From Microbulbifer agarilyticus (GTDB lineage: Bacteria > Pseudomonadota > Gammaproteobacteria > Pseudomonadales > Cellvibrionaceae): 64,000 bases of DNA. The position numbers were made by a program, and so were the translations under genes. A model generated the notes under the pieces. That model made no database searches. It saw only the letters and a program-made list of their open reading frames with translations, and had not been told where the DNA came from. Positions within the stretch are counted from its first letter, which is position 1, and every line of letters begins with the position of its first letter. Positions 11,426 through 52,852 of the stretch are shown here, one piece after another. The stretch covers positions 2,356,001-2,420,000 of the forward strand of contig NZ_CP019650.1 in NCBI RefSeq assembly GCF_001999945.1. Direction: 5' to 3'.

Positions 11426-12601
11426 TCAGACCGATTCCGTTGATGCAGGCTCTTCTGCCGGCGCAGCCACAGCGCGTCGGGTCGGCGCAATCAGCGGCAC
11501 CGTATCCAAAGCCCACTTGAAGTGTGGGTTCAGGCGACGGGCCGGTGAAGGAATGGTAAACACCTTTTCTCCTTCGTATGGCTTCATCGCCTTGGTATCA
11601 ATCTTCCAACCTTTCTCTTCAATATGCTTGCGGCGAATCATTCGCCAGGCGCCCATAAACTTGTCCTGCTCCACCGAGACTTCGTTCTCCAGAGACTCTG
11701 GCAGGTAGTTGGGAGAAAGCTGCGAAACAATATCGCCATCTTCACCAAAGACGCGCTTGGTACGCTTTTTCGCACCACCATCGAAGATAGGCCACTTGAA
11801 GAAGTTACGCACCTGCACCGCGAATGAACGTGTAGTGTTTTCATCGATCGGCGTGTTCGCATCAAAGATGATCATCTCCATCCAGGAGTTCACCTTGATA
11901 TGCAAACGCACACAGTGCCCGGGCAAGTAAAATGCCGGGGTTACATAGGTCGCTGCTTTATCCGCACGGAAAAGCTTGTTCAGGCCGAAGTTGCCTTCCA
12001 GTTGCGGCGGGTAAAGCACATTGTCGGAGGAGCCCCAATACTCACCGCGGTTGACCTTGAGAATTTCATTCTTCTCGGCCATTTCCGGGTAACCAAATCC
12101 AGGGTGTACAAATGCGGTATGGGCAATATCGATACCGTTCTCTACTACCCGATCAACGGAGCCTTCCCAGTTGTACTCTACTTCGACCGGACGCCAGTTT
12201 TTCTTGTCATCATACTCAGGGAAGTCTGGGATCGGATAGCGCTCTTCTTCTGGAAGATCACCGAGGAACACCCAAATCATTCCGTAACGCTCTTCCGTGG
12301 GATAAGCGTCGATACGCGCACGCTCCGGGATCGCAGAGTCTTCGCCACGGGAAGGAATGAATTGCACCTTACCTTCAGCATCAAACTCCCAGCCGTGGTA
12401 CGGGCAGGCAACACAATCACGTTTGGTGGTCCACCCCTTCGACAGTGAACCCCCGCGGTGGATACAAACATCGCTGAGGCAATTTACCTTGCCGGATTTG
12501 TCCCGAAAAAGAACAAAGTTCTGGCCAAGCATTTTTGCTCGAACAGGTTTGTCTTTTACGGTTTTGGACCACTCCGCCACGTACCAAAGGTTCGTCAACA
12601 T
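11426..12601 (-). CDS. Rieske non-heme iron oxygenase, PaO/VanA-like alpha subunit
   Basis: The ATG at 12601, with GAGGTG upstream, gives 391 residues. The Rieske centre is C46-x-H48-x17-C66-x2-H69. The mononuclear iron site is N155-x2-D158-x2-H161-x4-H166. The 'CPYHGWEFDAEGK...IPSRG' stretch and the preceding 'HRGGSLSKGW' resemble the pheophorbide a oxygenase/Tic55/VanA branch. The C-terminal CxxC and membrane helices of plant PaO are absent, so it is a soluble bacterial type. It would use electrons from a separate reductase (candidates at 49794 and 52322) to oxygenate or demethylate an aromatic or macrocyclic substrate. It is the last gene of the - strand block starting at 19739, with a 107-bp gap to the CoA-transferase upstream. 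Confidence 0.88.
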   Translation of the reverse strand: MLTNLWYVAEWSKTVKDKPVRAKMLGQNFVLFRDKSGKVNCLSDVCIHRGGSLSKGWTTKRDCVACPYHGWEFDAEGKVQFIPSRGEDSAIPERARIDAYPTEERYGMIWVFLGDLPEEERYPIPDFPEYDDKKNWRPVEVEYNWEGSVDRVVENGIDIAHTAFVHPGFGYPEMAEKNEILKVNRGEYWGSSDNVLYPPQLEGNFGLNKLFRADKAATYVTPAFYLPGHCVRLHIKVNSWMEMIIFDANTPIDENTTRSFAVQVRNFFKWPIFDGGAKKRTKRVFGEDGDIVSQLSPNYLPESLENEVSVEQDKFMGAWRMIRRKHIEEKGWKIDTKAMKPYEGEKVFTIPSPARRLNPHFKWALDTVPLIAPTRRAVAAPAEEPASTESV

Positions 12602-12708
12602 GATTAGCACCTCAGTGTGTTATTGATCTCGACATTTTTACGTAATGCTGATCGTCAAAGATCACTTATTTTTCTGATAAAGGTTACGTTTTGTCACGTA
12701 TTTTCGTG

Positions 12709-13824
12709 TCAGGCTTCCAGACCTGTATTAAGTAAACTTCCATTGTGCTCACCCAGTTCAGGCAATCGCGTGTTTACTTGTGCTGGCTCATCGAGAAACT
12801 TGATTGGCACCCCAAGGTGCCGGTTTCCCTGCTCGTCTTCAAAAACCATTTCACGGCTTTTTAAGTGCTGCTCGTCCAGTGCTTCATGCAATTGACGTAC
12901 CGGCGACCAGCAAACATCCAGGCCATCAAACCAGGCCTCCCATTCGGCCATGGTGCGACGGGAAAACTCAGCCTGCAGGAAAGCGATCACCTCACTCTGC
13001 TCACCGGGGGCACGCTTGCAGATTTCTGCGAGTTCAGGACGTCCTAATTTAGCAAACAGGTTTTCCGCAAATTTCACTTCGCTGCCGCCCAGTGTCAAAT
13101 AGCAGTCATCACTGGTGCGATAAATTCGATACATGGCATTCCCGCCCCAGGAACGCTCATCTTTGACCACCGGAGAGCGGCCTTCGGCAAAGACAGGCCC
13201 CACTGCATTCGGCAGCCATGCGATCAGGCTGTCCTGCATGGAGATATCCAAATAGTCGCCTTTACCGGTCTCGCTACGGCGCAGCAATGCCATCAGTATG
13301 CCCGATAACGCCATTAATGACCCGGCAATATCGGCCACAGGCATCGCAGGAGAACACGGCTCACCATTGCTCCCCTCATTGAGGAATACCGTTCCGGATT
13401 CGGCCTGGATACTGAGATCATGCGCAGGCTTTAAGCGTTTTTCTCCAGTCTGGCCAAATGCAGAAATGGAGCAATAGACCAGCCGCGGATTGCGTGCGAT
13501 GAGGGTCTCGTAGTCCAGCCCCAAACGGGCCATGGCACCAGGACGGAATCCCTCGACAAACACATCCGCGCTATCGATAAGCGCAAGAAGTTGCGCCTTC
13601 TGCTCCGGGTCTTTCAGGTTCAGGCAGAGGCTCTTCTTACCGCGATGGGTATTTCTGAACCAAACTGATTCGCCATTTTTGCGCAGCCCAATGTTTCGGG
13701 TTGGTTCGCCACTCAATGGCTCGACCTTGATCACTTCAGCACCGTGATCCGCCATCATCATGGTGAGGTGTGGCCCCGGTAGGAAGAGAGAAAGGTCGAC
13801 GACGCGGATACCTTGTAACTTCAT
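12709..13824 (-). CDS. Family III CoA-transferase (CaiB/BaiF type)
   Basis: A 371-residue protein with the family start 'GIRVVDLSLFLPGPHLTMMMADHGAEVIKVEP', the 'NTHRGKKSLCLNLK' segment and the catalytic Asp in 'AHDLSIQAESG'. It moves CoA between acids, typically from succinyl-CoA or another acyl-CoA to a dicarboxylic acid. It sits 39 bp after another family III CoA-transferase (13864-15060). Paired CaiB genes in one operon may form a heteromeric enzyme or act on two successive acids. Acyl-CoA dehydrogenase, MaoC and CitE-like genes upstream point to a mesaconate/methylsuccinate-type sequence. Confidence 0.9.
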   Translation of the reverse strand: MKLQGIRVVDLSLFLPGPHLTMMMADHGAEVIKVEPLSGEPTRNIGLRKNGESVWFRNTHRGKKSLCLNLKDPEQKAQLLALIDSADVFVEGFRPGAMARLGLDYETLIARNPRLVYCSISAFGQTGEKRLKPAHDLSIQAESGTVFLNEGSNGEPCSPAMPVADIAGSLMALSGILMALLRRSETGKGDYLDISMQDSLIAWLPNAVGPVFAEGRSPVVKDERSWGGNAMYRIYRTSDDCYLTLGGSEVKFAENLFAKLGRPELAEICKRAPGEQSEVIAFLQAEFSRRTMAEWEAWFDGLDVCWSPVRQLHEALDEQHLKSREMVFEDEQGNRHLGVPIKFLDEPAQVNTRLPELGEHNGSLLNTGLEA

Positions 13825-13863: not shown

Positions 13864-15060
13864 TCAGATGACTCGATCCGCAACCAAACGCGTAACGTCT
13901 TCCGCCGAATACCCGAGTCCATCGAGGAGTTCATGGGTGTCTGCGCCAAGCGGCGAGCAACCGGTTCCCGAGGGCCTGTTTCCGTCAAATTTTAACGGGC
14001 TTGCCAGCACTCTGAATTGACTATTATCAACATGTCCCACCGGCTGCAGCATCTGGGTTTGCGCCAACCAAGGGTTATCCATGGCCTGGGCAAAGGTATT
14101 TACCGGTGCAATCGGTAACTTGCCGGCAAAAAGATCCAACCAATGGGCACTCGGTTGTCTGGCAAACTCGGCGTCGAGTATTTCCGATAGTGCTTCACGG
14201 TACTGCCTGCGATCGGCCGCTGAGCTAAAGCGGAGGTCCGCCAGCAGATCTTTTCTGTCCAGGCCTTCCGCCAGGATCTGCCAAAACTTCTCTGTCATGG
14301 CCATGACGAAAACCCAGCCATCGGCACTGCGATAAATCTGGCAAGGTACCGTAGATGGATGGCCGGAGCGCGCGACACGCTCCGTCTCATGGCCTCGGTT
14401 CAAATACCAGGTAGCGGGGTATGTGAGCTGGGTAACCGCAACATCAAACAGGTTGACGTCCACATCGCGCCCTTTGCCCCCACGCAAGGTACCCACCAAG
14501 GCACCCAACACCGCCATCGCCAGTGTTACACCGCTCATGAAATCGACCATCGACAGACCAAAGCGCGCAGGTGGCGTTCCCGGCTCACCGGTAAGGTCCA
14601 TAAAACCGGCTTCCGCCTGCATCAGATAGTCGTAGCCCGGCCAGCTGGCGCGGTCATTATCTCGGCCATATGCCGATAAATGGCCACAAATAATTTCCGG
14701 CTTAATCGCGCTCAGATGAGCGTAATCCAACCCGAGCTTCGCGGGCTGATCCCCGCGGAGGTTGTTCATTACTACATCGGCACTGCGTACGAGGCGCTCG
14801 AAGATTTCACGCCCCTGTGGGCTTTTCAGGTCCAGTGTCAGGCTCTTTTTACTGCGATTGAAGGTCTGAAAGAAGTCGCTGTCGTTGTCACCCAGAAAAT
14901 ACGGACCGGACTTGCGCGCGATATCGCCACCGGTCGCGGGGTTTTCAATCTTGATGACTTCAGCCCCCATGTCCGCCAACTGCATTGAGCCGAACGGGCC
15001 GGCCCCGTACTGCTCAACAGCAATGACACGGATACCAGCCAGGGGTTTTGTCGCTTCCAT
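13864..15060 (-). CDS. Family III CoA-transferase (CaiB/BaiF type)
   Basis: 398 residues starting 'GIRVIAVEQYGAGPFGSMQLADMGAEVIKIENP', with 'TFNRSKKSLTLDLKS' and the catalytic Asp in 'GYDYLMQAEAGFM'. Its start codon overlaps the stop of the preceding acyl-CoA dehydrogenase by one base (TGATG), so translation is coupled. That coupling suggests it makes the CoA ester that the dehydrogenase oxidises. The exact acid is unknown; a C5-C7 dicarboxylate is the reasonable inference from neighbours. Confidence 0.9.
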   Translation of the reverse strand: MEATKPLAGIRVIAVEQYGAGPFGSMQLADMGAEVIKIENPATGGDIARKSGPYFLGDNDSDFFQTFNRSKKSLTLDLKSPQGREIFERLVRSADVVMNNLRGDQPAKLGLDYAHLSAIKPEIICGHLSAYGRDNDRASWPGYDYLMQAEAGFMDLTGEPGTPPARFGLSMVDFMSGVTLAMAVLGALVGTLRGGKGRDVDVNLFDVAVTQLTYPATWYLNRGHETERVARSGHPSTVPCQIYRSADGWVFVMAMTEKFWQILAEGLDRKDLLADLRFSSAADRRQYREALSEILDAEFARQPSAHWLDLFAGKLPIAPVNTFAQAMDNPWLAQTQMLQPVGHVDNSQFRVLASPLKFDGNRPSGTGCSPLGADTHELLDGLGYSAEDVTRLVADRVI

Positions 15061-16229
15061 CAGATGGCCTCACGCGCCGCCAGTTGCTTGGCAATAATGA
15101 TGCGCTGCATTTCGTTGGTACCCTCGCCCACACACATCAGCATGGCATCCCGGTAATAGCGCTCTATCTCGTACTCGGTAGAGAAGCCGTAGCCGCCGAA
15201 AATCCGCATCGCTTCCTGAGAACAGAAAACACCCGCTTCACTGGCAAAATACTTGGCCATACCTGCTTCCAGGTCGCAGCGCTGGCCGCTGTCATACATA
15301 CGCGCTGCCTGATCCACCAGCAGCTTGGCCGCCTCAACCTTGGCCGCCATTTCGCCGAGCTTAAGCTGAATAGCCTGATGCTTGATGATTGGCTTGCCGA
15401 AGGTTTCGCGCTCCTGGGCGTAGCGCAGTGCCAGCTTCAGCGCGCCCTGTGCAATACCAGCTCCGCGGGCGGCAACGTTAATGCGCCCGAGTTCAAGACC
15501 GCCCACGGCAATGTGGAATCCGCGACCTTCCTCACCTCCCACCAGCTGATCGATGGAAACACGAAAATCTTCGAACACGACCTCGGCGGTATCAATCGCG
15601 CGATAACAGGTCTTCTTGATTTTGTTGATGGTAATGCCCGGCAGCAGATTACCTTCATCATCCTTGGTGCGGATGATCAGCATGGACATGCCCCGGTGAC
15701 GTGGCTCGGCATCGGGATCGGTTTTTACCAGCAATGCAAGGCAGTTACCGTTAAGTGCATTGGTGATCCACATTTTGCTGCCGTTCACCACATACTCGTC
15801 ACCATCGCGACGCGCTACACAGCGAATGGACTGCAAGTCCGTACCTGCATTCGGTTCAGTGAGCGCAATACCACCGCGCAGCGTACCCTCGGCCATCAGC
15901 GGCAAATACTGCTGTTTCTGCTCCTCGGTACCGAAGCGCTCAATCGCAGCGGCCATGATGAGATGTGAATTAAAGATACCGCCGGGTGCCATCCACGCAG
16001 CAGAAATCTTTTGAACGATGCGGGCGTAGGTCGATGCCGACAACGACAGTCCGCCGAACTCTTCACCAATGGTGGCACCGAACAGACCGAGCTCCTTCAT
16101 GGTCTCTACCAATTCGTGCGGATACTCATCGGCCAGGTCTTTTTCCCGTGCAATGGGTGCGACATCATTGGCAACAAATTTATCAATGGTATCGAGGATC
16201 GCGGCCTCGTCTTCTGCACTCCAGCTCAT
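15060..16229 (-). CDS. Acyl-CoA dehydrogenase
   Basis: A 389-residue classical ACAD: 'GLFGATIGEEFGGLSLS' near the N-terminus, 'ALTEPNAGTDLQSI' and 'WITNALNG' flavin/substrate motifs, and the C-terminal 'FGGYGFSTEYEIERYYRDA'. It uses FAD to introduce an alpha-beta double bond and passes electrons to ETF (not in the window). Start has AGGAG at good spacing. Context: CoA-transferases downstream, and the MaoC hydratase and CitE-type lyase upstream, give activation, dehydrogenation, hydration and C-C cleavage in one operon. Confidence 0.93.
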   Translation of the reverse strand: MSWSAEDEAAILDTIDKFVANDVAPIAREKDLADEYPHELVETMKELGLFGATIGEEFGGLSLSASTYARIVQKISAAWMAPGGIFNSHLIMAAAIERFGTEEQKQQYLPLMAEGTLRGGIALTEPNAGTDLQSIRCVARRDGDEYVVNGSKMWITNALNGNCLALLVKTDPDAEPRHRGMSMLIIRTKDDEGNLLPGITINKIKKTCYRAIDTAEVVFEDFRVSIDQLVGGEEGRGFHIAVGGLELGRINVAARGAGIAQGALKLALRYAQERETFGKPIIKHQAIQLKLGEMAAKVEAAKLLVDQAARMYDSGQRCDLEAGMAKYFASEAGVFCSQEAMRIFGGYGFSTEYEIERYYRDAMLMCVGEGTNEMQRIIIAKQLAAREAI

Positions 16230-16254: not shown

Positions 16255-16773
16255 TCAGTAATTTACTTTGTCTTCCATTTCCGCACCGCGCTTCCATACC
16301 AGCACCTTACGGACAAAAGAACACACCTCGGTTCCGTCTTGATTGAAACCACGGGTTCGCACGGTAACAATGCCCTGGGTTGGGCGAGACTTGGATGCGC
16401 GCTTTTCCAATACTTCCGATTCAGCGTAAAGTGTGTCGCCAACAAACAGTGGCGCAGACATGCGGATATCGTCCCAACCGAGATTAGCAATGGCTTTTTG
16501 GCTGATGTCGGTCACGCTCATGCCCACCATCAGGGCCACGGTAAACGGACTACAGACGAGCGGCTTGCCAAACTCTGTACCTGCGGCGTATTCCTTATCG
16601 AAATGCGCAGGGTGGGTATTCATGGTCAGCAGCGTAAACCAAGTGTTATCAGTTTCGGTGATGGTGCGACCTGGGCGGTGTTCATAGGTATCACCCACGG
16701 TAAAGTCGTCAAAGAAACGTCCAAACGTTTCCCGGTACCGATTTTCACCGACCTGTTTTACTTCTCCAGCCAT
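16255..16773 (-). CDS. MaoC-family enoyl-CoA hydratase
   Basis: 172 residues with hot-dog-fold features: 'FDDFTVGDTYEHRPGRTITETDNTWFT' and 'TMNTHPAHFD', the Asp and His positions of MaoC hydratases. 'GDTLYAESEVLEKR' follows later, as in mesaconyl-CoA hydratase-like proteins. It would add water to an unsaturated (possibly branched) dicarboxyl-CoA. The neighbouring CitE-like lyase is the expected consumer of a 3-hydroxyacyl- or malyl-CoA product. Confidence 0.88.
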   Translation of the reverse strand: MAGEVKQVGENRYRETFGRFFDDFTVGDTYEHRPGRTITETDNTWFTLLTMNTHPAHFDKEYAAGTEFGKPLVCSPFTVALMVGMSVTDISQKAIANLGWDDIRMSAPLFVGDTLYAESEVLEKRASKSRPTQGIVTVRTRGFNQDGTEVCSFVRKVLVWKRGAEMEDKVNY

Positions 16774-16793: not shown

Positions 16794-17627
16794 TCAGACT
16801 AATTCTTTATCCGCGTCTGATCGGGCGATCAAACGACGAGCACTATCCACGATGGGCTGATCAACCATGCGGCCATCGACAACGACAGCGCCACCGTTCG
16901 CCTGTTCAAAGGCATCCAGCATTTTTCGAGCAGTTGCAAGCGCTTCCTCAGAAGGCGCAAAAGCCCGATGAATGGGAGCAACTTGTGCGGGATGAATTGC
17001 GGCTTTCGCGGAGAATCCCAATGCGGAAACCCGGCGGGTTTCCTGCTCCAAACCCTCAGCATCCTGCACACTTAAATACGGGACATCGATAACTGGTAAA
17101 CCGTGCAAGGCCGCAGTCACTACAATCTGTGAACGCGCCCACAGCAATGGTTCCCACGAAAACTCGGCACCTATTTGCGCGGCGAAGTCGGCGCCGCCAA
17201 ACATAACTGCGTCCAAGTTGGGATCCTGGCAAATCGCATCCAGCGACAACAGGCCGGAGGCGCTTTCTATCAATGCGATCCAACGCACCTTGCCACCAAG
17301 CACTCTGTTGGCTTGGGGGATATCATTCTGTGATTCCGTCTTCGCCAGCATTAAGCGCGCAGGCAGTGTGCCCTGAGACAGGGCAGCCAGATCGTTCCTG
17401 CCCGCCTCTGTCGCCACGGCATTAATACGTATGCACAGTCGTGCCAAACGCGCTGCGTCACAGCTGGCCAAAAATGCGCACACCGCTGTGCGCGCATCTG
17501 CCTTGTTTGCGGCCGGTACGGCATCTTCGAGATCGATACACACAACATCCGCAGAACTAGCGAGGGCCTTTTCAAATCTTTCCGGGCGATTGCCCGGTAC
17601 GAACAGCAGGCTGCGAACATCAAACAT
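16794..17627 (-). CDS. CitE-like CoA-ester lyase (HpcH/HpaI family)
   Basis: 277 residues with 'RSLLFVPGNRPERFEKAL', the acidic 'VVCIDLEDAVP' motif, 'IALIESASGLLSL' and 'MFGGADFAAQIG' metal-binding segments and 'KAAIHPAQV'. The family cleaves malyl-, methylmalyl- or citramalyl-CoA into a 2-oxoacid plus acyl-CoA with Mg2+. Its place after a MaoC hydratase mirrors mesaconyl-CoA to (methyl)malyl- or citramalyl-CoA cleavage. The start overlaps the stop of the PuuE-like gene by one base (TAATG), so translation is coupled. Confidence 0.88.
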   Translation of the reverse strand: MFDVRSLLFVPGNRPERFEKALASSADVVCIDLEDAVPAANKADARTAVCAFLASCDAARLARLCIRINAVATEAGRNDLAALSQGTLPARLMLAKTESQNDIPQANRVLGGKVRWIALIESASGLLSLDAICQDPNLDAVMFGGADFAAQIGAEFSWEPLLWARSQIVVTAALHGLPVIDVPYLSVQDAEGLEQETRRVSALGFSAKAAIHPAQVAPIHRAFAPSEEALATARKMLDAFEQANGGAVVVDGRMVDQPIVDSARRLIARSDADKELV

Positions 17628-18526
17628 TAGAAACGCTCCCAGCCGCGCAAAGGCTCGCGAATTTGATTGGCAGGCACCTGTGCAGCAAACGTATCGGCAA
17701 TATCCGCCCGGGTCGCAAACCAGACGCCATCTTGGGCACGGGCGTACTTCAGGAATTCATCGAGTGCGCCGATACGCCCTGGCCGCCCGATAATGCGTAA
17801 ATGCAGTCCCAGCGACATCATGCGCGTTTGCTCTGCACCCTCCTGTAACAGGGTATCCAGTGTGCGGCAGGCATAGTCCAGCCAGGCATCCGGGGTAAGT
17901 GACGGAGCCGTCCAGAATTTCATGTCGTTGGAATCAATGGCATAGGGCAATACCAACATCGGGTCGTCAGTGCCTTGCACCGGCGCCCAGAAAGGCGCGT
18001 CGGCACTGTAGTCGTCCATGTGGTAATCGAAGCCCTCTTCCTGCAGCAAGCGACGGGTGTTGTCTGTGTGCAGGTAGCGGCTCAGCCAACCGCGGGGGCG
18101 CTGTCCGGTAGTCTCGGAGATGGAGGTAATGGCATTGCGGATAAAGGCTCTCTCCTCATCCTCGTCCATGGCAAACTGATGCTGCCAGCGATAACCGTGG
18201 CTACAGACTTCGTGCGCGCCTTCGCGAATACACTGGGCAATCTGTGGCGCCCGCTCAAGGGCCACCGCCGCCGCACAAAAAGTTGCCGGTACCTGGTAGC
18301 GCTCCAGCAATGCCTGTATGCGCGGCCAACCCTCGCGGATGCCGTATTCGTAGTTGCTTTCATTGGCATGGGCACGAATGGGCTTGCGCGGGGCAACCCC
18401 CAGCTCGTCCACGGGCTCCGGGCCCCGGTCCCCATCGAGCAGCGTGCTCTCTGAACCTTCCTCAACGTTAACGACAATCGACAGTGCCAACCGTGCACTG
18501 TCCGGCCAGGCTACTTGCTTGCTCAT
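17627..18526 (-). CDS. PuuE-like (allantoinase-type) polysaccharide deacetylase-fold hydrolase
   Basis: The ATG at 18526 gives 299 residues; an in-frame TTG six bases earlier is possible. It keeps the PuuE signatures 'SIVVNVEEGSES' near the N-terminus and 'CSHGYRWQHQ' mid-protein, which in PuuE sit around the active site of a cofactor-free or metal-light cyclic amide hydrolase. PuuE opens the hydantoin ring of allantoin. Here, with no purine genes around, a cyclic imide or lactam such as a maleimide or pyrrolinone ring is a plausible substrate (inference). Two more divergent relatives lie at 22253 and 23209. Confidence 0.82.
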   Translation of the reverse strand: MSKQVAWPDSARLALSIVVNVEEGSESTLLDGDRGPEPVDELGVAPRKPIRAHANESNYEYGIREGWPRIQALLERYQVPATFCAAAVALERAPQIAQCIREGAHEVCSHGYRWQHQFAMDEDEERAFIRNAITSISETTGQRPRGWLSRYLHTDNTRRLLQEEGFDYHMDDYSADAPFWAPVQGTDDPMLVLPYAIDSNDMKFWTAPSLTPDAWLDYACRTLDTLLQEGAEQTRMMSLGLHLRIIGRPGRIGALDEFLKYARAQDGVWFATRADIADTFAAQVPANQIREPLRGWERF

Positions 18527-18550
18527 ACCCAATAATCTCTCACAAGCGGA

Positions 18551-27536: not shown

Positions 27537-27613
27537 AGTTCCCCCGGCATGGCTATTTCCCGGCAAAGTTATTCTCCGCCGGGACACTGGATAAATTCCT
27601 CTTTCGAGCCAAT

Positions 27614-36021: not shown

Positions 36022-36033
36022 TGATAATTATCA
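36022..36033. promoter_or_regulatory. FNR-box-like palindrome TGATAATTATCA
   Basis: A perfect 12-bp palindrome; with flanks ATGATaattATCAA it matches nine of ten positions of TTGAT-N4-ATCAA. It is 56 bp upstream of the gene starting at 35966 and overlaps the stop codon of the MFS gene. Confidence 0.5.
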
Positions 36034-40072: not shown

Positions 40073-40116
40073 TTGCAAGCCCCCTTGGCCAAGTTGGCGG
40101 AAGTAAAATCGGTCGC

Positions 40117-46350: not shown

Positions 46351-46477
46351 TTTTAGACCTGCCTTTGCGAATACGTACAATCCAATTGGACGGAAGTACG
46401 GTTACCAATCAATAAGCCACTTCTTGTAGGCTACCGGAAAGAACCTACTAGCAAACTGCTACTAACCTACTACCAAT

Positions 46478-46600: not shown

Positions 46601-47947
46601 ATGGCCAACCAGCAGGACCACCGGTTTTTAGGGCTCAAGCTAGAGAATGATGTCTCCCGCTCCAATGTGCTCACCTTCTACTTCGCGTGCTTGGCGACCA
46701 TCATGTTCGCCTCCTTCATTCCCCAGAGCCAACCCTTCCTGCTCACAGAGTTTCTCAATATTCCCCCTGAGCGCCACGGCATGGTCAGCGGCCTGCTCAA
46801 TTTCTGGGCGGAGATTGTGATTATCATCTCGGTCGCTATATTCGGCCCCCTTTCCGACCGTTTCGGCCGCCGCCCTATCACCGGGTTCGGTTTCCTTGTG
46901 ATGTCTGCAGGTATTGCGCTTTACCCCCACGCCGAGAATATCACCGAGTTACTGATCGTTCGGCTGGGCTATTCCGTGGGGCTAGCCGCAGTGACGACCA
47001 CCATCGTTGCCCTCATTGCCGACTATGTGCGCAATGAAAGCCGCGGCCGTGCGACCGGCCTGCAAGGCGTAATGAATGGTGTGGGCGCAATGATTTGTGT
47101 GTTTTTGCTGCTGCAACTACCGGCGATCCTGCAAAACAGCGGTGCAACCGCCCAGGAAGCCGGCATCCAGACCTACGGCCTTGTAGCCATCGTTTCGTTT
47201 GTCACCGGCGTGTTGATGTTGATTGGACTGAAGCCCGGCAGCAGCCAGGCCGAACCGAGTGAACACAGTGAAAGCTTGATCAGTATCACCCGCAACGGCC
47301 TGCGCGCGGCGCGCGACCCGAGCATCGCGCTGGCCTACGGCGCCTCGTTTGTAGCGCGCGGCAACCTGATGATTGTCGGCACCTTTTTCACATTGTGGGT
47401 CACCAATTACGGCACTGCGGAGCTGGGTATGAGCCGAGCCGAGGCGCTGGCGCGTGCGGGCATGATTGTGGGCATCGCCCAGGGCTGCGCATTACTGACC
47501 GCCCCGGTATTCGGCATACTCGCCGACAAGATCTCGCGCATTCGCGCCCTGATCATCGCGCTACTGATTTCCGCAATTGGCTACGGCTCAACCATTTTCA
47601 TTACCGACCCCTTTACCACCGGCATGATTATTTGCGCCGCACTAATTGGCCTCGGTGAAATTGGCTGCATTATTACCAGCGGCGTTCTAGTGGCCCAGCA
47701 GGCGCCACAATCGCACCGCGGCGCGGTGATTGGTTTCTTCACCCTCTCCGGTGCGGTGGGAATTCTGGTTGCGAGCGTGGCTGGCGGCTACCTGTTCGAT
47801 ACCTGGCGCGCTTCAGGGCCGTTTGTGTTCTTTGCCGGTGTTGCCCTACTCGTCCTGTGTTGGGCCATAGTCTTGGAAAAGCGCTTGGGAAAACGCCTGG
47901 TAACATCCGAGCAACCGTTAACTCCGGCTGGTGACATGCCTGCTTAA
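46601..47947 (+). CDS. Major facilitator superfamily transporter
   Basis: 448 residues, 12 helices, loop motif 'GPLSDRFGRRPITGFG' and 'ADYVRNESRGRATG', a paralogue of the MFS protein at 27759 throughout. It is monocistronic, with a strong terminator 29 bp after the stop. As each of the two paralogues pairs divergently with a tandem nitrilase, each may import the compound that its nitrilase or associated bilin-reductase-like protein handles. Confidence 0.9.
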   Translation: MANQQDHRFLGLKLENDVSRSNVLTFYFACLATIMFASFIPQSQPFLLTEFLNIPPERHGMVSGLLNFWAEIVIIISVAIFGPLSDRFGRRPITGFGFLVMSAGIALYPHAENITELLIVRLGYSVGLAAVTTTIVALIADYVRNESRGRATGLQGVMNGVGAMICVFLLLQLPAILQNSGATAQEAGIQTYGLVAIVSFVTGVLMLIGLKPGSSQAEPSEHSESLISITRNGLRAARDPSIALAYGASFVARGNLMIVGTFFTLWVTNYGTAELGMSRAEALARAGMIVGIAQGCALLTAPVFGILADKISRIRALIIALLISAIGYGSTIFITDPFTTGMIICAALIGLGEIGCIITSGVLVAQQAPQSHRGAVIGFFTLSGAVGILVASVAGGYLFDTWRASGPFVFFAGVALLVLCWAIVLEKRLGKRLVTSEQPLTPAGDMPA

Positions 47948-48037: not shown

Positions 48038-48844
48038 CTACGCCGGTGGTGCGTCATACTCGGCAAACAAATCACGTTTGTTAAAACCTGCAGTAAGAAA
48101 GCGCCAGAATGCCTTGCGCCCGGTTAGCCACGCCACCCGGCTACCGGATTTTTGTGCATTCAATACACCACGCACCAAATACGGGGTAACCGTCTCCACC
48201 GTATCCCCGAGGATATTCAGGATCTTGCGGGTCTTCTGCCACTCAGGCGAAGCAAGGTCGTAATCTCCAACCAATAGATCCGTCACCACAATACCGGGAC
48301 TCAAAGTATTTACCTGCACGTCGGTGCCCTTCACCTCTTTCTGCAGTGAAGTGGTCAGGTAATTGAGCGCGCGCTTGGTCGCTCCGTAGGCCGCCATACC
48401 GGTATTGGTTTGGCCGGTACTGCCAAAACCTTCCATATTCCAGATTTGCCCGTGGCCCTGTTTCAACATCCCTGCCAGCGCAACCTTACAGGCCAGCAGC
48501 AGGCCGGTCAGATTGGTATCGACGATCGCACGCAAATCTTGCGCAGACTGTTCATGCAGCGGCTTCCGCACAATGCTCATACCGGCATTGTTAATCCAGA
48601 TATCCACCGCACCCTGGCTATTGGCGAAACCCCAGAGCTTGGCCAGATCGGCCTCCGAAGTGATATCACAGGCGATTCCCGCTACCGCGTCCTTACCATG
48701 CTGGCTTTGCAACTCAGCGACCACGCTATCTACCTTGCTCTGGCCGCGTGCACTGATAATTACGCGACACCCGCTTGCCAAAAAGTTTTCCGCGAGCCCT
48801 CGCCCTATTCCTCGGGTACTACCGGTTATGACCACAGTCTTCAT
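48038..48844 (-). CDS. NYC1/NOL-like (chlorophyll b reductase-like) short-chain dehydrogenase
   Basis: 268 residues. It fits plant NYC1/NOL chlorophyll b reductases better than generic SDRs: 'VVITGSTRGIGRGLAENFL' (4-22), 'GIACDITSEADL' (56-67), 'DIWINNAG' (81-88), 'IWNMEGFGSTG' (134-144) where the plant enzymes have 'FNMDGAGSGG', 'AAYGATK' with Y153 and K157, and 'LSPGIVVTDLL' (181-191). The plant enzyme reduces the 7-formyl group of chlorophyll b. Here it may reduce a formyl or keto group on a tetrapyrrole or one of its fragments. An operator-like site lies 81 bp upstream in a divergent gap. Confidence 0.82.
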   Translation of the reverse strand: MKTVVITGSTRGIGRGLAENFLASGCRVIISARGQSKVDSVVAELQSQHGKDAVAGIACDITSEADLAKLWGFANSQGAVDIWINNAGMSIVRKPLHEQSAQDLRAIVDTNLTGLLLACKVALAGMLKQGHGQIWNMEGFGSTGQTNTGMAAYGATKRALNYLTTSLQKEVKGTDVQVNTLSPGIVVTDLLVGDYDLASPEWQKTRKILNILGDTVETVTPYLVRGVLNAQKSGSRVAWLTGRKAFWRFLTAGFNKRDLFAEYDAPPA

Positions 48845-49011: not shown

Positions 49012-49644
49012 ATGGCCGAACGATTCCCCGAAAAAACCAACCCCACGGCGACGAGCTACCCCACTTTTCCCATAGGCTCCGTGGGCTACAACCTGATGAT
49101 GATGCGCGGTACCTGGCACGACCAGGTCGAGCTGTTTCATCTAGACGGCAGGCCACTGGAAGACGACACCGCAGCTGGCAGTGGCACGCCGGGACCAAGC
49201 CCGTTTGACAACCTGGTCTACCTCGACTTTGACGGGCACCGCCTGCAACTGACCAATGTGCACTTCCGCGGACGCGAGCCCACCGCCAAAACCTTTACCG
49301 GCCAGCTACGCGACAACCTGCTGGTGTTTGATCCACTCGGCCCCGGCGCTTATGAAAATGTCGGCGTCTCCGGCGGTGTCGGCATCCTGACCTTCAATGC
49401 GCTCAGGCTGAACCCCGCCTGCGAGGTCTATATGGAACCCGATTTCATTATGCTCACCGCCCCGGGCCAACGGGTTCGCCATACCGTTCTGTACCGTGAA
49501 GGTGTCGCCACCCGCACGCTTACTGCGCGCGGTGTACGCCTTTCGCCAACCTGCGATCAACGCCATGAACTCGATCCAAGAGGCAAGGCTGGCCCGGTTC
49601 ACGAAGAACCCTTCAGCGCATCCATCTGGAAACACCTCGCCTGA
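49012..49644 (+). CDS. Probable calycin-like beta-barrel protein (DUF3598-like pattern)
   Basis: 210 residues, no signal peptide. Repeated strand-turn units suggest a single antiparallel barrel: 'YNLMMMRGTWHDQVELFHLDG', 'LVYLDFDGHRLQLTNVHFRG', 'VGVSGGVGILTFNAL', 'EVYMEPDFIMLTAPGQRVRHTVLYREG'. The Gly-x-Trp start and late Arg-rich strand resemble lipocalin-related DUF3598 proteins of phototrophs, a fold used elsewhere to bind bilins. This is a fold-level guess. It is the first gene of a + strand group with a rubredoxin reductase fusion, a second barrel protein and a flavin reductase. Confidence 0.6.
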   Translation: MAERFPEKTNPTATSYPTFPIGSVGYNLMMMRGTWHDQVELFHLDGRPLEDDTAAGSGTPGPSPFDNLVYLDFDGHRLQLTNVHFRGREPTAKTFTGQLRDNLLVFDPLGPGAYENVGVSGGVGILTFNALRLNPACEVYMEPDFIMLTAPGQRVRHTVLYREGVATRTLTARGVRLSPTCDQRHELDPRGKAGPVHEEPFSASIWKHLA

Positions 49645-49793: not shown

Positions 49794-51257
49794 ATGCAGG
49801 GGTATCGGATTTGGGAATGCCTGGTATGCGGCTGGGTTTACGATGAATTAAAAGGCGCACCCGAGGATGGCATACCACCAAAAACCCGCTGGGAAGATGT
49901 CCCCGATGACTGGCTGTGCCCGGAGTGCGGTGTAGGCAAGAGCGACTTTGAAATGATCGAAGTCCACACGCAGCCTTCAAGTACCGCAACCAGTACCGCA
50001 GCTAGCACTGCAATCCAGAACGATAGCCCGGAAACTCAAGAAGCAGCCGAGTCCAACGCAGAATTGGCTGCTTTTGCCAACATCGATTACGCGCGCAAAC
50101 CCATCATCATTGTTGGCACCGGACTCGCGGGCTATCAACTGGCGAAAGAACTGCGCAAGCATGACGCCAGCACACCCCTCATTATGATTACCGCGGATGA
50201 TGGAAACAGCTATTCCAAACCGCAGTTAAGTACCGCATTCCAAAAAAGGCGCTCACCGGAGCAGCTAGTCAGCTACAGTGCCCGCGAAATGGCTGAGACG
50301 CTTCAGGCCAACATCCTGACCTTCTCGAAGGTAAGCGCGATCGACACCGATGCCCACACGGTGACAATCGATAGCGGGCGACAGCAGTCTCACCTGACCT
50401 ACAACAAACTGGTGCTGGCACTTGGCTCAGAGCCAATTCATGCCCCGGTAGCAGGCAACGCCGCCGGTTGCGCATTCCATATCAATGACCTGCAAGATTT
50501 TCAGCGTTTTTACACCGCGGCCAGCGGTGCAAAATCGGCGCTGGTGATCGGCGGTGGCCTGATTGGTTGCGAATACGCGAACGACCTCGTTCAGTCCGGC
50601 TTCGAAGTGCACGTGGTTGAGCCGCAATCTCAGGTGCTCGGTAATTTGCTGCCGCCCGATGCCAGTGCACTGGTACAGACAACACTGAGCCAAGCGGGGG
50701 TCAGCTTCCACCTTGGCACCACGGTTAAGTCACTCGATCATCGCGGTTCCGGTATTCAAGTGGTGCTTGAGAATGGCACCCATATTCAAGTTGACCGGGT
50801 GATCAGCGCGATTGGCGTGCGCCCCAGAGTTGAACTGGCACAACAGTGTGGCATTCCCTGCAACCGCGGCATACTGACCGACCGCTTGCTGGCCACGGAA
50901 GTCGAAGATGTCTACGCGCTGGGCGACTGCGCCGAGGTAGATGGCCACAACCTCTGCTATGTGGCACCGCTACTCGCTTCCGCGCAGGCGCTGGCGCGGA
51001 CCCTGGCCGGCACACCGACACCGGTTTTTTATGACAGCATGCCGGTCAACGTCAAAACCACACTCTGCCCGGTGATTACCTCACCCCCACCGCGTGGGAC
51101 GGAGGGCGACTGGCATTACACACGCGCGGACAGCCAGGGCGTCGCAGCCCGTTTTACCAGCCCCAACGGAGAGCTGCTAGGTTTTGCACTGGCCGGGGAA
51201 GCCTGCCAGCAAGTCACCGAATTCAGTGAACAGGCGCCACCAATCATGCAGAATTGA
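49794..51257 (+). CDS. Rubredoxin-NAD(P)H:rubredoxin reductase fusion
   Basis: 487 residues. An N-terminal rubredoxin domain (1-57) with C9-x2-C12 and C42-x2-C45 is joined by a Ser/Thr/Ala/Glu-rich linker to an FAD/NAD-binding reductase. The reductase has 'IIIVGTGLAGYQLAKEL' near 102, 'ALVIGGGLIGCEYANDL' near 245 and 'VYALGDCAEVDGHNLCYVAPLLASAQALA'. It passes electrons from NAD(P)H through its own rubredoxin to an acceptor. In this setting the Rieske oxygenase (11426) or the ferredoxin-dependent RCCR-like proteins are candidate acceptors; no separate ferredoxin gene was found. The ATG is preceded by TTTTGGAGC. Confidence 0.93.
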   Translation: MQGYRIWECLVCGWVYDELKGAPEDGIPPKTRWEDVPDDWLCPECGVGKSDFEMIEVHTQPSSTATSTAASTAIQNDSPETQEAAESNAELAAFANIDYARKPIIIVGTGLAGYQLAKELRKHDASTPLIMITADDGNSYSKPQLSTAFQKRRSPEQLVSYSAREMAETLQANILTFSKVSAIDTDAHTVTIDSGRQQSHLTYNKLVLALGSEPIHAPVAGNAAGCAFHINDLQDFQRFYTAASGAKSALVIGGGLIGCEYANDLVQSGFEVHVVEPQSQVLGNLLPPDASALVQTTLSQAGVSFHLGTTVKSLDHRGSGIQVVLENGTHIQVDRVISAIGVRPRVELAQQCGIPCNRGILTDRLLATEVEDVYALGDCAEVDGHNLCYVAPLLASAQALARTLAGTPTPVFYDSMPVNVKTTLCPVITSPPPRGTEGDWHYTRADSQGVAARFTSPNGELLGFALAGEACQQVTEFSEQAPPIMQN

Positions 51258-51360: not shown

Positions 51361-52332
51361 ATGAGTAACGAAAAGAAGCCCAGTAACTGGCAGCAAGCGA
51401 TTGAAGGTGAATGGCACGGCCTACCATCATTGTTTGAAGCGGACGGCACCCATGTGGGTTACAACAAGGTAAGCCGAGCCAGTGAGCACGAAAATGGCCG
51501 CACCACCTATTGGATGAACACTCAATTCGATGCAACCGGTCCGCTGAATGATCGGTTTGAAATCGGTTCACCGTTTCGCTTTGGGGTACTCGATTCCGAT
51601 ATGGACCGGATCTATACCGGCCCGGACTTTTTTGGCAGTGGCCGCCCCTACGGGCTTCTGGTCGATTCCAATTATTTTTCCCCGGGCTGGAACGTCAACC
51701 TGCGCACCATGAACCACGTGGTTCCGGACCTCGGCATGCAGGTTTACTCCTCACAGCTGTTCGAGGGCGACACCCTGGTTGGGGTATTTAATGGACTGTA
51801 TGTGGTAACCCACGATCACGACACCAACCCCACCACCCAGAAGCGTGTCACAGCCTTCCTGGAGCAAGAAAAAGTGAACGGCAAGCGTCCGTTTAACTTG
51901 CCAGTAAAACATGCGGGCAAATTTACCGGCCGCTTTGAGGTGTACAACGATAAACAGGAGCTGGTGGGCCACAACGACGTCGTCATTCACCACAACCCCC
52001 TCAACCTTCTGCACTCCGAGCAGACGATCGAAATTAGCGGCGTGGTCAATGCCAGCTGGAAAACCATGCGCACGCGCAACGGTAACCACCACCAGTATCA
52101 CGGCCCAGACATGTACGGTAACGGTATGTCTTATGGACGCTACCTCTACTCCGTGCGCCACGTGTACGGTGAAGCGTTCAAGTTGTGGTCACGGGAAACG
52201 CAAATTGACGAAGATTACACCTTCGTTTGTGCCTGGCAGTTTATGCAGTCTCAGAAAGAAAAATACACCACCTTCGGCGTACTGCGCTGGGAAGAAGGTG
52301 ACCTGAAACTGGGAGCGAATTATGTCGACTGA
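51361..52332 (+). CDS. Internally duplicated beta-rich protein of unknown function
   Basis: 323 residues, no signal peptide. Two halves share a motif about 160 residues apart: 'YTGPDFFGSGRPYG' (85-98) and 'YHGPDMYGNGMSYG' (246-259), each preceded by Trp/Asn-rich strands and followed by long polar strands. This indicates a duplicated barrel-type fold. I do not recognise the family. It may be an enzyme or binding protein for a bulky, planar or chiral ligand. Its end overlaps the flavin reductase start by 11 bp, so the two are coproduced, possibly as an oxygenase component with its reductase. Confidence 0.7.
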   Translation: MSNEKKPSNWQQAIEGEWHGLPSLFEADGTHVGYNKVSRASEHENGRTTYWMNTQFDATGPLNDRFEIGSPFRFGVLDSDMDRIYTGPDFFGSGRPYGLLVDSNYFSPGWNVNLRTMNHVVPDLGMQVYSSQLFEGDTLVGVFNGLYVVTHDHDTNPTTQKRVTAFLEQEKVNGKRPFNLPVKHAGKFTGRFEVYNDKQELVGHNDVVIHHNPLNLLHSEQTIEISGVVNASWKTMRTRNGNHHQYHGPDMYGNGMSYGRYLYSVRHVYGEAFKLWSRETQIDEDYTFVCAWQFMQSQKEKYTTFGVLRWEEGDLKLGANYVD

Positions 52333-52852
52333 AGCAGAACTGTTGGCACCGGCCAATGCCGATATCGCGGAACAGCACCACAAAATTGAACCGCTGAACT
52401 TGCGTCAGGTTTTCGGCCAGTTTGCCACTGGCGTAACCATTGTCACCACCGGTGGCGAATCCGGTGAAGCCGTGGGTATGACGGTAAGCAGCTTCAACAC
52501 CGTATCCCTCGATCCACCCCTGATATTGTGGTGCATCGACAAGAAAACCGGCTGCTTCGATGCGTTCAATCAGTGTGAGCACTTTGCCATTCATGTGCTG
52601 AGCGACCAGCAAGACAACCTATCGAGCCTGTTCGCTCGCCGCGGCGTGGACAAGTTCTCCGAGCTGGATTACCACATGAGCGCCCAAGGTGTGCCGTTGC
52701 TGCATGAATACTGCGCGCGACTGCAATGCACGCTGACTGCGCGCCACGAAGGTGGTGATCACCTAATTATGGTGGGCCGGGTAGACGCCATGCACACCCA
52801 GGATCGCGAGCCGCTGCTATTTCATCGCGGCGCCTACGCTCGGATCGCCTAA
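52322..52852 (+). CDS. Flavin reductase-like (HpaC/DIM6-NTAB family) protein
   Basis: 176 residues: 'FGQFATGVTIVTTGGESGEAVGMTVSSFNTVSLDPPLILWCIDKKTGCFDAF' and 'FAIHVLSDQQDNLSSLFA', the split-barrel flavin reductase signature. It supplies reduced FMN or FAD to a two-component monooxygenase. The partner could be the ACAD-fold flavoprotein at 42389 or the coupled protein at 51361. GGGAGC lies before the ATG. Confidence 0.9.
   Translation: MSTEAELLAPANADIAEQHHKIEPLNLRQVFGQFATGVTIVTTGGESGEAVGMTVSSFNTVSLDPPLILWCIDKKTGCFDAFNQCEHFAIHVLSDQQDNLSSLFARRGVDKFSELDYHMSAQGVPLLHEYCARLQCTLTARHEGGDHLIMVGRVDAMHTQDREPLLFHRGAYARIA

What the first reader, a model, noticed from the sequence alone, without database searches (positions are those of the whole stretch)
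11426..52852. Bacterial gene set resembling plant chlorophyll breakdown: a candidate tetrapyrrole-degradation pathway
Seen in one 41-kb stretch: an RCCR-like protein (29133), a second RCCR/bilin-reductase-superfamily protein (43786), an NYC1/NOL-like SDR (48038), a PaO/VanA-type Rieske oxygenase (11426), a RedY/HapK-like protein (19428) and a rubredoxin reductase fusion (49794). In plants NYC1, PaO and RCCR act in one pathway from chlorophyll to phyllobilins. The remaining genes (imide/amide hydrolases, maleate-type enzymes, CoA-dependent lyases) fit mineralisation of monopyrrole fragments. Each resemblance is by eye; the combined pathway is inference. Alternatives are bilin/haem products, prodiginines or another N-heterocycle.
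Basis: partly seen in the sequence, partly recalled or inferred. Interest (0 to 1): 0.95.

Follow-up and report, generated by a model that had tools for sequence, protein, structure and literature searches.

The report
Bacterial gene island for pigment breakdown
A marine bacterium carries a 50-kilobase set of genes, with related sets in two distant bacterial phyla, that looks like a pathway for taking apart ring-opened chlorophyll-type pigments and burning the fragments; the chemistry is untested, but it would answer how microbes mineralise these pigments.

Summary
The genes are real. 29133-29948+ is an RCC_reductase homologue above Pfam's cut-off; 43786-44532- is a divergent relative (profile-profile E 3e-13) that Pfam misses. 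The Rieske oxygenase is VanA-type, not PaO-type; HapK-like protein, rubredoxin reductase and an SDR are confirmed, the SDR's NYC1/NOL kinship untested. It is no chance neighbourhood: stretches around 43786 homologues in 7 of 9 other genomes hold 6-18 window-gene homologues per 20 kb, against 0-5 weak ones in 14 controls. An RCCR-esterase-Rieske-RCCR2-U51361-SDR2 core has one order in Streptomyces and one Chloroflexota genome. 43786 and orphan 51361 occur in the same 12 of 390 genomes. I propose a catabolic island for open-chain tetrapyrroles: reduction, oxidative cleavage to methyl-R-maleimides and -succinimides, imide and amide hydrolysis, then CoA-transferase/hydratase/lyase steps giving pyruvate plus R-acetyl-CoA. 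Feedstock is open: chlorophyllase-profile esterases in two relatives and absence of haem oxygenase in 21 of 24 genomes lean to chlorophyll; no Stay-Green match, no cluster-linked PaO and loss of plant RCCR's Glu154 speak against a copy of the plant route. No activity, substrate or structure was tested.

The parts
11426..12610 (-). Rieske non-haem iron oxygenase, VanA_C type; Rieske and mononuclear-iron motifs present
   Evidence: homologues in the cluster stretches of 13 of 20 genomes
12709..13824 (-). family III CoA-transferase (CoAT1)
13864..15060 (-). family III CoA-transferase (CoAT2)
15060..16229 (-). acyl-CoA dehydrogenase (ACAD1)
16255..16773 (-). MaoC hydratase; best NCBIfam model RipB/Ich itaconyl-CoA hydratase (5e-74, below curated cut-off)
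16794..17627 (-). CitE-type lyase; best NCBIfam model RipC (5e-73, below cut-off)
17627..18532 (-). polysaccharide-deacetylase-fold cyclic amide/imide hydrolase candidate (PDA1; best model allantoinase PuuE 9e-77, below cut-off)
18551..19402 (-). SDR (SDR1)
19428..19739 (-). HapK/RedY-like small protein
   Evidence: Pfam PF11639 6.2e-11
19972..20643 (-). glutathione S-transferase-like protein
20689..21354 (-). protein without Pfam match, membrane protein by eye; homologue next to CNhyd2 in L064, L066, L067, L068
21500..22234 (+). isochorismatase-fold amidase candidate (Isoch1; best solved relatives 4l07 and N-carbamoylsarcosine amidohydrolase)
22253..23212 (+). cyclic amide/imide hydrolase candidate PDA2 (best solved relative PuuE allantoinase)
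23098..24171 (+). cyclic amide/imide hydrolase candidate PDA3 (true start probably further downstream)
24242..25024 (+). GntR/UTRA regulator, next to Isoch1-PDA2-PDA3 also in L113 and L115
25075..25824 (-). protein of unknown family (U25075)
   Evidence: homologues in relatives
25821..27587 (-). CN-hydrolase-fold amidase candidate, two stretches matched (CNhyd1)
27759..29120 (+). MFS transporter (MFS1)
29133..29948 (+). RCCR: red-chlorophyll-catabolite-reductase family protein
29977..30843 (+). PEP mutase/isocitrate-lyase-superfamily lyase (PEPm), best model methylisocitrate lyase PrpB, below cut-off; listed ORF opens at 29854, likely start 29977
30861..32333 (+). aldehyde dehydrogenase (ALDH1)
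32984..33901 (-). HMG-CoA-lyase-like enzyme (HMGL1)
33925..35124 (-). family III CoA-transferase (CoAT3; best models succinate-glutarate and mesaconate CoA-transferase, below cut-off)
35190..35966 (-). maleate isomerase/arylmalonate decarboxylase-family enzyme (Amd1)
36031..37242 (-). MFS transporter (MFS2)
37311..38144 (-). maleate isomerase/arylmalonate decarboxylase-family enzyme (Amd2)
38165..39379 (-). FAD monooxygenase (FADmo)
   Evidence: 13 of 20
39458..40309 (-). isochorismatase-fold amidase candidate (Isoch2; true start probably downstream)
40117..40971 (-). alpha/beta hydrolase (abH)
40935..42377 (-). aldehyde dehydrogenase (ALDH2)
42389..43678 (-). acyl-CoA dehydrogenase-fold flavoprotein (ACAD2)
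43786..44532 (-). RCCR2: divergent RCCR/bilin-reductase-superfamily protein with Asp96 where plant RCCR has Glu154
44638..46380 (-). CN-hydrolase-fold amidase candidate (CNhyd2)
   Evidence: 15 of 20
46601..47947 (+). MFS transporter (MFS3)
48038..48844 (-). SDR2, motif NMEGFGSTG...YGATK
   Evidence: 16 of 20 (SDR2-like paralogues counted in)
49012..49644 (+). orphan family U49012
   Evidence: 10 of 20
49794..51257 (+). rubredoxin-rubredoxin reductase fusion, candidate electron supply
51361..52332 (+). orphan family U51361, same phyletic pattern as RCCR2
52322..52852 (+). flavin reductase
52948..54057 (-). HMG-CoA-lyase-like enzyme (HMGL2)
54049..55260 (+). family III CoA-transferase (CoAT4)
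55333..56022 (+). Crp-family regulator; homologue follows U51361 in L064, L066, L067, L068
58706..60163 (-). amidase-signature amidase
60114..61514 (-). PaaK-like CoA ligase
61550..62944 (-). MmgE/PrpD-like protein (weak match)
62941..63975 (-). MmgE/PrpD-like protein (weak match); a LeuD-LeuC pair follows just beyond the window (G000:C1:2420296-2422391)

Best explanation
The region (about 11.4 kb to past the right edge) is a catabolic island that degrades exogenous open-chain tetrapyrrole pigments, most likely chlorophyll-derived, to central metabolites. Inferred route: TonB-dependent and MFS uptake; alpha/beta hydrolases remove ester groups; the Rieske oxygenase, fed by rubredoxin reductase or flavin reductase, and the FAD monooxygenase oxidise or cleave the chromophore; RCCR-superfamily proteins (RCCR and RCCR2 here, RCCR3 and RCCR4 in relatives) with SDR2-type dehydrogenases reduce different bridges or carbonyls; aldehyde dehydrogenases and CN-hydrolases process bridge carbons and lactams. 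Rings of natural tetrapyrroles of the haem/chlorophyll kind bear one methyl and one other group R (vinyl, ethyl, propionate), so they end as methyl-R-maleimides or, if already reduced, -succinimides. Imidases (PDA1-3) open these, isochorismatase-fold amidases release ammonia, Amdase-family enzymes isomerise the maleates, and CoA-transferase + hydratase (RipB-like, or LeuCD) + lyase (RipC-like, HMGL, or PrpB-like on the free acid) split methyl-R-malate units into pyruvate and R-CH2-CO-CoA. Shown: homology, linkage, conservation, co-occurrence. Inferred: substrate, reaction order and every activity.
For: RCCR membership by Pfam and PDB search. RCCR2 homology. Core order RCCR4-esterase-Rieske-RCCR2-U51361-SDR2 in Streptomyces L041 and in one Chloroflexota genome, G054, L147. 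Clusters in other gammaproteobacteria with controls. Two or three RCCR-superfamily members in the cluster stretches of 14 of 20 genomes. RCCR2 and U51361 in exactly the same 12 of 390 genomes, 1/C(390,12)=4.6e-23 ignoring relatedness. Imide/amide/branched-diacid enzymes by family searches. In G054 the operon continues with flavin reductase-HMGL, LeuC/LeuD (homoaconitase/DmdB-family models), CoA-transferase and an allantoinase/hydantoinase-type amidohydrolase, an unrelated candidate for the imidase role. No haem oxygenase in 21 of 24 cluster genomes, the other 3 being Streptomyces. Chlorophyllase profile over cut-off in Paraglaciecola L023 and in G219 L089. Haematinic acid is a reported chlorophyll product (PMC7318184, passages).
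Against: No activity or substrate data. Plant RCCR's Glu154 (importance recalled) is Ala in RCCR and RCCR4 and Val in RCCR3. Rieske is not PaO-type; its best NCBIfam model is a 4beta-methylsterol monooxygenase (below cut-off) and best PDB match a methylxanthine demethylase. PaO profile rings in 2 of 24 genomes, over cut-off in 1, away from the cluster. Stay-Green 0 of 22 (no control rang). The LeuC/LeuD pair right of the window passes curated 3-isopropylmalate dehydratase models and may simply make leucine. RipB, RipC, allantoinase and PrpB models are hit below their cut-offs. Of 10 cluster-linked alpha/beta hydrolases of relatives scanned, 2 pass the chlorophyllase cut-off, 2 touch the profile below it and 6 do not; best PDB matches of the L023 one are PAF acetylhydrolases; window 40117 shows no such hit. 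In PMC7318184 maleimides were not detected in the authors' own samples. G130 and G234 keep RCCR2 paralogues outside such clusters. The RipB/RipC-like block is seen in 1 of 20 genomes, a Microbulbifer.
Confidence: 0.6

Rival explanations
1. Same kind of pathway, but the feedstock is bilins (phycobilins of red algae and cyanobacteria, biliverdin, bilirubin or urobilinoids), not chlorophyll; the Rieske protein is a side-chain hydroxylase and no macrocycle opening occurs.
For: RCCR and bilin reductases are one superfamily; 29133 also touches Fe_bilin_red and phycoerythrobilin reductase models weakly. No PaO-type Rieske in the cluster, no Stay-Green match. RCCR2 carries an acidic residue at the Glu154 place.
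Against: Esterases are linked in relatives, two over the chlorophyllase cut-off, while free bilins carry no ester (recalled). RCC_reductase outscores Fe_bilin_red. Absence of haem oxygenase in 21 of 24 genomes speaks only against an internal source.
Confidence: 0.23
2. A catabolic island for another N-heterocycle or imide (nicotinate-type maleamate pathway, hydantoins, corrinoids or prodiginines); the RCCR-fold proteins were recruited for a non-tetrapyrrole substrate.
For: Isoch1 and Amd1 best match 4l07 (recalled as a maleamate amidase) and maleate cis-trans isomerase; imidases resemble allantoinase; HapK-like protein. RCCR2 is so divergent that Pfam misses it.
Against: Two or three RCCR-superfamily members in 14 of 20 cluster genomes, in three phyla, are hard to explain without an open-chain tetrapyrrole. 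HapK homologue in 1 of 20, a Microbulbifer.
Confidence: 0.13
3. A biosynthetic or detoxification cluster making or modifying a pigment rather than a catabolic one.
For: Bilin reductases are biosynthetic in phototrophs (PMC10151467, passages); MFS carriers could export; HapK is named after a prodiginine-type gene set (recalled).
Against: Hydrolases, CoA-transferases, lyases and acyl-CoA dehydrogenases dominate; TonB-receptor homologues, 24-27% identical, lie inside relatives' clusters.
Confidence: 0.04

Closest known systems
Plant PaO/phyllobilin pathway of chlorophyll breakdown (NYC1/NOL, SGR, PPH, PaO, RCCR)
   Same: RCCR-family reductase, a Rieske oxygenase, an SDR and, in two relatives, chlorophyllase-profile esterases in one linkage group
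   Different: Rieske is VanA-type, no Stay-Green match, Glu154 not kept, several RCCR paralogues, and a downstream catabolic set; plants stop at phyllobilins (recalled)
Ferredoxin-dependent bilin reductases and pre-PcyA of heterotrophic bacteria (PMC10151467, passages read)
   Same: same superfamily, in non-photosynthetic bacteria
   Different: those clusters carry bilin-binding globins, V4R and Fe-S proteins; 29133 is below the Fe_bilin_red cut-off; the passages read mention no catabolic genes
Itaconate/methylsuccinate degradation cluster (PMC12290011, abstract and outline read)
   Same: the window has CoA-transferases, acyl-CoA dehydrogenase, RipB-like hydratase, RipC-like lyase and two weak MmgE/PrpD-like proteins
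   Different: below the curated RipB/RipC cut-offs and set beside imidases and RCCR genes, which suggests 3-substituted substrates
Dimethylmaleate hydratase/dimethylmalate lyase steps of nicotinate fermentation (recalled)
   Same: a LeuCD-type hydratase and a PEP-mutase/PrpB-type lyase in one region
   Different: the LeuCD pair beside the window passes leucine-pathway models; other nicotinate genes were not looked for
Bacterial Stay-Green homologues (PMC8531759, passages read)
   Same: plant-type chlorophyll enzyme in an Anaerolineae bacterium, physiological relevance said to be unknown
   Different: different protein; no match in the 22 genomes searched here

Membership tests
RCC reductase family (PF06405) | 29133 scores above Pfam's gathering cut-off | tested here: met
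   50.1 bits against 24.9
RCC reductase family (PF06405) | 43786 scores above the same cut-off | tested here: not met
   12 bits, E 0.12; homology only by pairwise and profile-profile comparison
Plant RCC reductase | Glu154 near the substrate (importance recalled) | tested here: not met
   Ala116 in all 18 aligned RCCR proteins, set against Arabidopsis RCCR; Asp96 in all 19 RCCR2, but not in the divergent paralogue L061
Plant RCC reductase | Asp291 (importance recalled) | tested here: inconclusive
   HMMER pairs it with invariant Asp242; MAFFT puts the conserved Asp about two columns away
Plant RCC reductase | reduces RCC to pFCC with ferredoxin | not testable with these tools
   needs assay
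Ferredoxin-dependent bilin reductase (PF05996) | score above cut-off | tested here: not met
   29133: 26.2 bits against 31; 43786: 14.4
Pheophorbide a oxygenase | PaO C-terminal domain PF08417 | tested here: not met
   VanA_C instead; no PaO domain at E<=10; no match in G000
Rieske non-haem iron oxygenase | Rieske CxH..CxxH and mononuclear iron D..H...H motifs | tested here: met
   positions 49 and 161
NYC1/NOL chlorophyll b reductase | groups with NYC1/NOL among SDRs | not testable with these tools
   no plant sequence at hand; motif N-M-[EL]-G-x-G-S is kept in most SDR2/SDR2-like matches, its likeness to NYC1/NOL is recalled
Stay-Green Mg-dechelatase | PF12638 match | tested here: not met
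   0 of 22 genomes (one further handle not held); nothing rang in the controls either
Chlorophyllase | PF07224 over cut-off in the cluster | tested here: inconclusive
   L023 (43.5 bits) and L089 (49.3) against 26, 2 of 10 linked hydrolases scanned; not seen in the window; PETase/PAF-hydrolase likeness
Haem oxygenase route to biliverdin | PF01126 in the genome | tested here: not met
   absent in G000 and in 21 of 24 cluster genomes; controls rang in 3 of 14
Itaconate degradation RipB/RipC | score above NCBIfam cut-off | tested here: not met
   247.9 against 340 and 245.9 against 375 bits
Allantoinase PuuE | score above NCBIfam cut-off | tested here: not met
   258 (PDA1) and 92.8 (PDA3) against 424.6; PDA2 not scanned there
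3-isopropylmalate dehydratase LeuCD (pair right of the window) | score above NCBIfam cut-off | tested here: met
   leuC 564.6 against 560.25, leuD 204.4 against 116.25; so a leucine role is not excluded
HapK/RedY-like | PF11639 above cut-off | tested here: met
   43.2 against 25 bits

The most novel reading that the evidence does not exclude
This is a complete bacterial pathway that mineralises chlorophyll: an independently assembled counterpart of the plant PaO route (esterase, SDR, Rieske oxygenase, several RCCR-superfamily reductases, two orphan proteins) coupled to a 'methyl-R-maleimide funnel' in which every pyrrole ring, whatever its second substituent, is hydrolysed, hydrated and split into pyruvate plus R-acetyl-CoA, and shared among Gammaproteobacteria, Actinomycetota and Chloroflexota.
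Probability: 0.37. Interest if true: 0.96.

Novelty: new variant of a known kind. Interest (0 to 1): 0.86.

Why it matters
Chlorophyll is made and destroyed on a scale of about 10^12 kg a year (figure in PMC7318184), and I know of no described bacterial gene set that carries it, or bilins, to carbon dioxide and ammonia. Ten literature searches listed none (the listings are capped and the library lacks most subscription journals). A conserved, compact gene set in cultured marine bacteria would make this directly testable, would give marker genes for pigment turnover in sea, soil and microbial mats, would give roles to two orphan protein families, and would bear on where plant RCCR came from.

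Tried and rejected
Rejected: PaO membership of the Rieske protein. Rejected as sole basis: Pfam for 43786; profile-profile comparison was used instead. Rejected: chance neighbourhood (control stretches). Not settled: whether the LeuCD pair beyond the window serves this pathway or leucine; a second LeuC exists at 2800051, whose neighbourhood was fetched (L135) but only searched for LeuC/LeuD, and the pair itself passes leucine-pathway models. Considered and ranked low: corrinoid or nicotinate breakdown, biosynthesis. Led nowhere: PDB searches for U51361 and RCCR2; tRNA scan; Stay-Green search without a ringing control; PDB search for SDR2, which gave only general SDRs; papers on bacterial RCCR clusters (searches listed under Why it matters); PMC12930011 and PMC12503162 (passages), which had nothing on the question. 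The tree supports RCCR2 apart from the rest and separate RCCR3 and RCCR4 groups; RCCR falls into a Chloroflexota and a gammaproteobacterial group, the Streptomyces row sits beside RCCR3/RCCR4, and the plant row is a long branch whose place is unsure. Dropped before a count: of 16 control stretches fetched, the two from G016 were not counted, as G016 was not among the test genomes. After the report was first sent back I changed: RCCR3 residue (Val), the RCCR count per cluster, the LeuCD caveat, the G130/G234 sites and the chlorophyllase tally; odds of the main statement and of the novel case were lowered by 0.02 and 0.01 for the LeuCD result, two rivals raised by 0.01.

Full report
WHAT WAS CHECKED. 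The window is G000:C1:2356001-2420000 of a complete 4.26-Mb genome; its 29133 protein is 95-98% identical to three proteins named Microbulbifer agarilyticus. 29133-29948+ scores 50.1 bits against PF06405 RCC_reductase (cut-off 24.9) and 26.2 against Fe_bilin_red (cut-off 31), and finds solved Arabidopsis RCCR at E 6.6e-9 and a eukaryotic bilin reductase at 2.8e-4. 43786-44532- fails Pfam and PDB sequence search, but aligns with 29133 (BLASTP E 1e-9; hhalign of 18 against 19 sequences, probability 97.9, E 3.3e-13). The Rieske protein has both iron motifs and a VanA C-terminal domain. SDR, HapK-like protein and rubredoxin reductase are confirmed; NYC1/NOL kinship of the SDR is untested.

SURROUNDINGS. 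Pfam and NCBIfam scans show that most genes from 11.4 to 64 kb are catabolic enzymes, transporters or regulators: three PuuE-fold hydrolases, two isochorismatase-fold amidases, two CN-hydrolases, two maleate isomerase/arylmalonate decarboxylase relatives, four family III CoA-transferases, a RipB-like hydratase, a RipC-like lyase, two HMG-CoA-lyase-like enzymes, a PrpB-like lyase, acyl-CoA and aldehyde dehydrogenases, an FAD monooxygenase, an amidase, a CoA ligase and two weak MmgE/PrpD-like proteins. Just right of the window lie LeuD and LeuC (L084), which pass the curated leucine-pathway models; a second LeuC, 48% identical, lies elsewhere.

DISTRIBUTION. PF06405 rings in 12 of 48 Microbulbifer genomes and in 3 of 301 Chloroflexota genomes (one of them the seed genome). 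A pattern scan of one genome per GTDB species gave 29 loci: 6 Microbulbifer or near kin, Thalassotalea, Thalassomonas, Paraglaciecola, Rheinheimera, 15 Chloroflexota and 4 Streptomyces. RCCR2 has 1256 relatives in the protein collection, of which 120 were listed, named ones in Microbulbifer, Halioglobus and Halieaceae among them; U51361 has 272, 120 listed. In 390 genomes of the order, RCCR2 and U51361 are found in the same 12 genomes, 7 of 142 genera; under independence that agreement has probability 4.6e-23, a figure that ignores kinship.

CONSERVED LINKAGE. Stretches picked only because they hold RCCR2 (L064-L070, 7 genomes of 3 unnamed families, f40, f39, f23; f40 I take for Halieaceae, not shown) contain 6-18 homologues of window-cluster genes per 20 kb, RCCR2 included, 6-16 at 45% identity or more; 14 control stretches of the same genomes hold 0-5, none at 45%. 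The f40 order Amd1-Amd2-FADmo-Isoch2-abH-ALDH2-ACAD2-RCCR2-CNhyd2-MFS3-SDR2-U49012-RCCR4-U51361-Crp parallels window 35-56 kb, and Isoch1-PDA2-PDA3-GntR-HMGL2-CoAT4-LeuD-LeuC follows within the next 20 kb in G168 and G299. In Streptomyces L041 and in G054 (L147) the order RCCR4-esterase-Rieske-RCCR2-U51361-SDR2 is the same. In G054 the operon goes on with a flavin reductase-HMGL fusion, LeuC/LeuD of the homoaconitase/DmdB kind, a CoA-transferase and an allantoinase/hydantoinase-type amidohydrolase. That last enzyme is unrelated to the PuuE-fold enzymes but could do the same job; I take this as a point for imide hydrolysis, by inference. A table over 20 genomes is (SDR2 16, CNhyd2 15, Rieske 13, FADmo 13, Amd1 13, Isoch2 13, U51361 12, RCCR2 11, RCCR4 10, RCCR 9, RCCR3 7 of 20; stretches of unequal length); 14 of 20 have two or three RCCR-superfamily members. 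Results against a uniform picture: in G130 and G234 the RCCR2 paralogue sites examined, 6 of 9, lie outside such clusters, although clusters around U51361 exist there (L136, L139); the RipB/RipC/HapK block is seen only in Microbulbifer; most Chloroflexota loci show only the RCCR-FADmo-CNhyd2 half within the 10-kb flanks.

RCCR CLASSES AND ACTIVE SITE. Four classes were distinguished by alignment and tree: RCCR (29133), RCCR2 (43786), RCCR3 (beside an SDR2-like gene in relatives; PF06405 finds only 29133 in the window's genome) and RCCR4. The Arabidopsis row joins RCCR3, but on a branch too long to trust. The place of plant Glu154 is Ala in RCCR and RCCR4, Val in RCCR3 and Asp in all 19 aligned RCCR2 proteins (not in the divergent paralogue L061); an Asp near plant Asp291 is kept throughout, with a two-column ambiguity. 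The role of these plant residues, and the numbering anchor F218V for the pair 3aga/3agb, are recalled. So the bacterial proteins should not be called RCC reductases by function.

SUBSTRATE. For chlorophyll: RCCR outscores bilin reductase; alpha/beta hydrolases are linked in relatives, 2 of 10 scanned over the chlorophyllase cut-off; no haem oxygenase in G000 or in 21 of 24 cluster genomes, with controls ringing; an alkyl-succinate type module (acyl-CoA dehydrogenase plus MmgE/PrpD, as in the methylsuccinate cluster of PMC12290011, abstract) would suit the reduced ring D of chlorophylls (inference). Against: no Stay-Green match (weak negative), no PaO in the cluster, no chlorophyllase hit in the window, and the chlorophyllase profile is shared with other hydrolases. 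Bilins therefore stay a serious rival. PMC7318184 (passages) reports haematinic acid and dipyrrolic products in leaves and herbivore material and cites maleimides from senescent leaves and lake sediments, but found no maleimides in its own samples.

MECHANISM. Rings of natural haem- and chlorophyll-type tetrapyrroles have a methyl and one other beta substituent R. A methyl-R-maleimide opened by an imidase and deaminated by an amidase is a methyl-R-maleate; activation, hydration and C-C cleavage, as in itaconate breakdown, gives pyruvate and R-CH2-CO-CoA (butyryl-, crotonyl- or glutaryl-CoA for ethyl, vinyl or propionate). The window and its right flank hold three possible sets in parallel (CoAT1/2 + 16255 + 16794; CoAT3 + HMGL1; CoAT4 + HMGL2 + LeuCD) plus a PrpB-like lyase, which would fit several R groups. 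All of this paragraph is inference from families.

LITERATURE. Searches listed no paper on an RCCR-bearing bacterial catabolic cluster in the open-licence library; the listings are capped and subscription journals are mostly not held. PMC10151467 (passages) treats bilin reductases of heterotrophic bacteria and uses RCCRs as outgroup; PMC8531759 (passages) says the physiological relevance of bacterial Stay-Green homologues is unknown. UniRef already names single Microbulbifer proteins 'red chlorophyll catabolite reductase', so the gene name is not new; the conserved system is what I found no account of.

VERDICT. A real, conserved, multi-phylum gene set; catabolic; most probably for open-chain tetrapyrroles (0.60 for the statement as given, chlorophyll favoured over bilins).

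Noticed in passing
L055-L063 (genomes G130, G234): Five and four RCCR2-superfamily paralogues in one genome, 25-42% identical to 43786; the 6 of 9 sites examined lie outside the catabolic cluster: an unexplored expansion of this fold.
   Followed up: partly
window 20689-21354: Small membrane protein (by eye) without Pfam match, homologue next to CNhyd2 in f40 clusters; two other such families sit in Chloroflexota and Streptomyces clusters (L029:14134-14958 and 15047-15763, L041:15411-16283).
   Followed up: no
window 12709-17627 with 60114-63975: Block resembling the itaconate/methylsuccinate cluster (CoA-transferases, acyl-CoA dehydrogenase, RipB/RipC-like, MmgE/PrpD-like), seen only in Microbulbifer among the genomes tabulated.
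   Followed up: partly
L016, L017, L018, L020, L021, L074 between CoAT3 and Amd1: A TonB-dependent receptor of 25-27% identity to window 3842 lies inside relatives' clusters; the window has no room for it at that place, nor has L019.
   Followed up: partly
L147:6607-7989: Fusion of a flavin reductase with an HMG-CoA-lyase-like enzyme in a Chloroflexota operon; the two are separate neighbours in the window (52322, 52948).
   Followed up: no
window 3842-11235: TonB receptor, SahH, MetK and SSF carrier just left of the Rieske gene; in G130 (L083) SahH and MetK also lie beside a Rieske gene, perhaps by old chromosomal order.
   Followed up: no
window 25075-25824, 49012-49644, 51361-52332: Three families without Pfam match at E<=0.001, two of them conserved in the cluster; pigment-binding or lyase roles are guesses.
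   Followed up: partly
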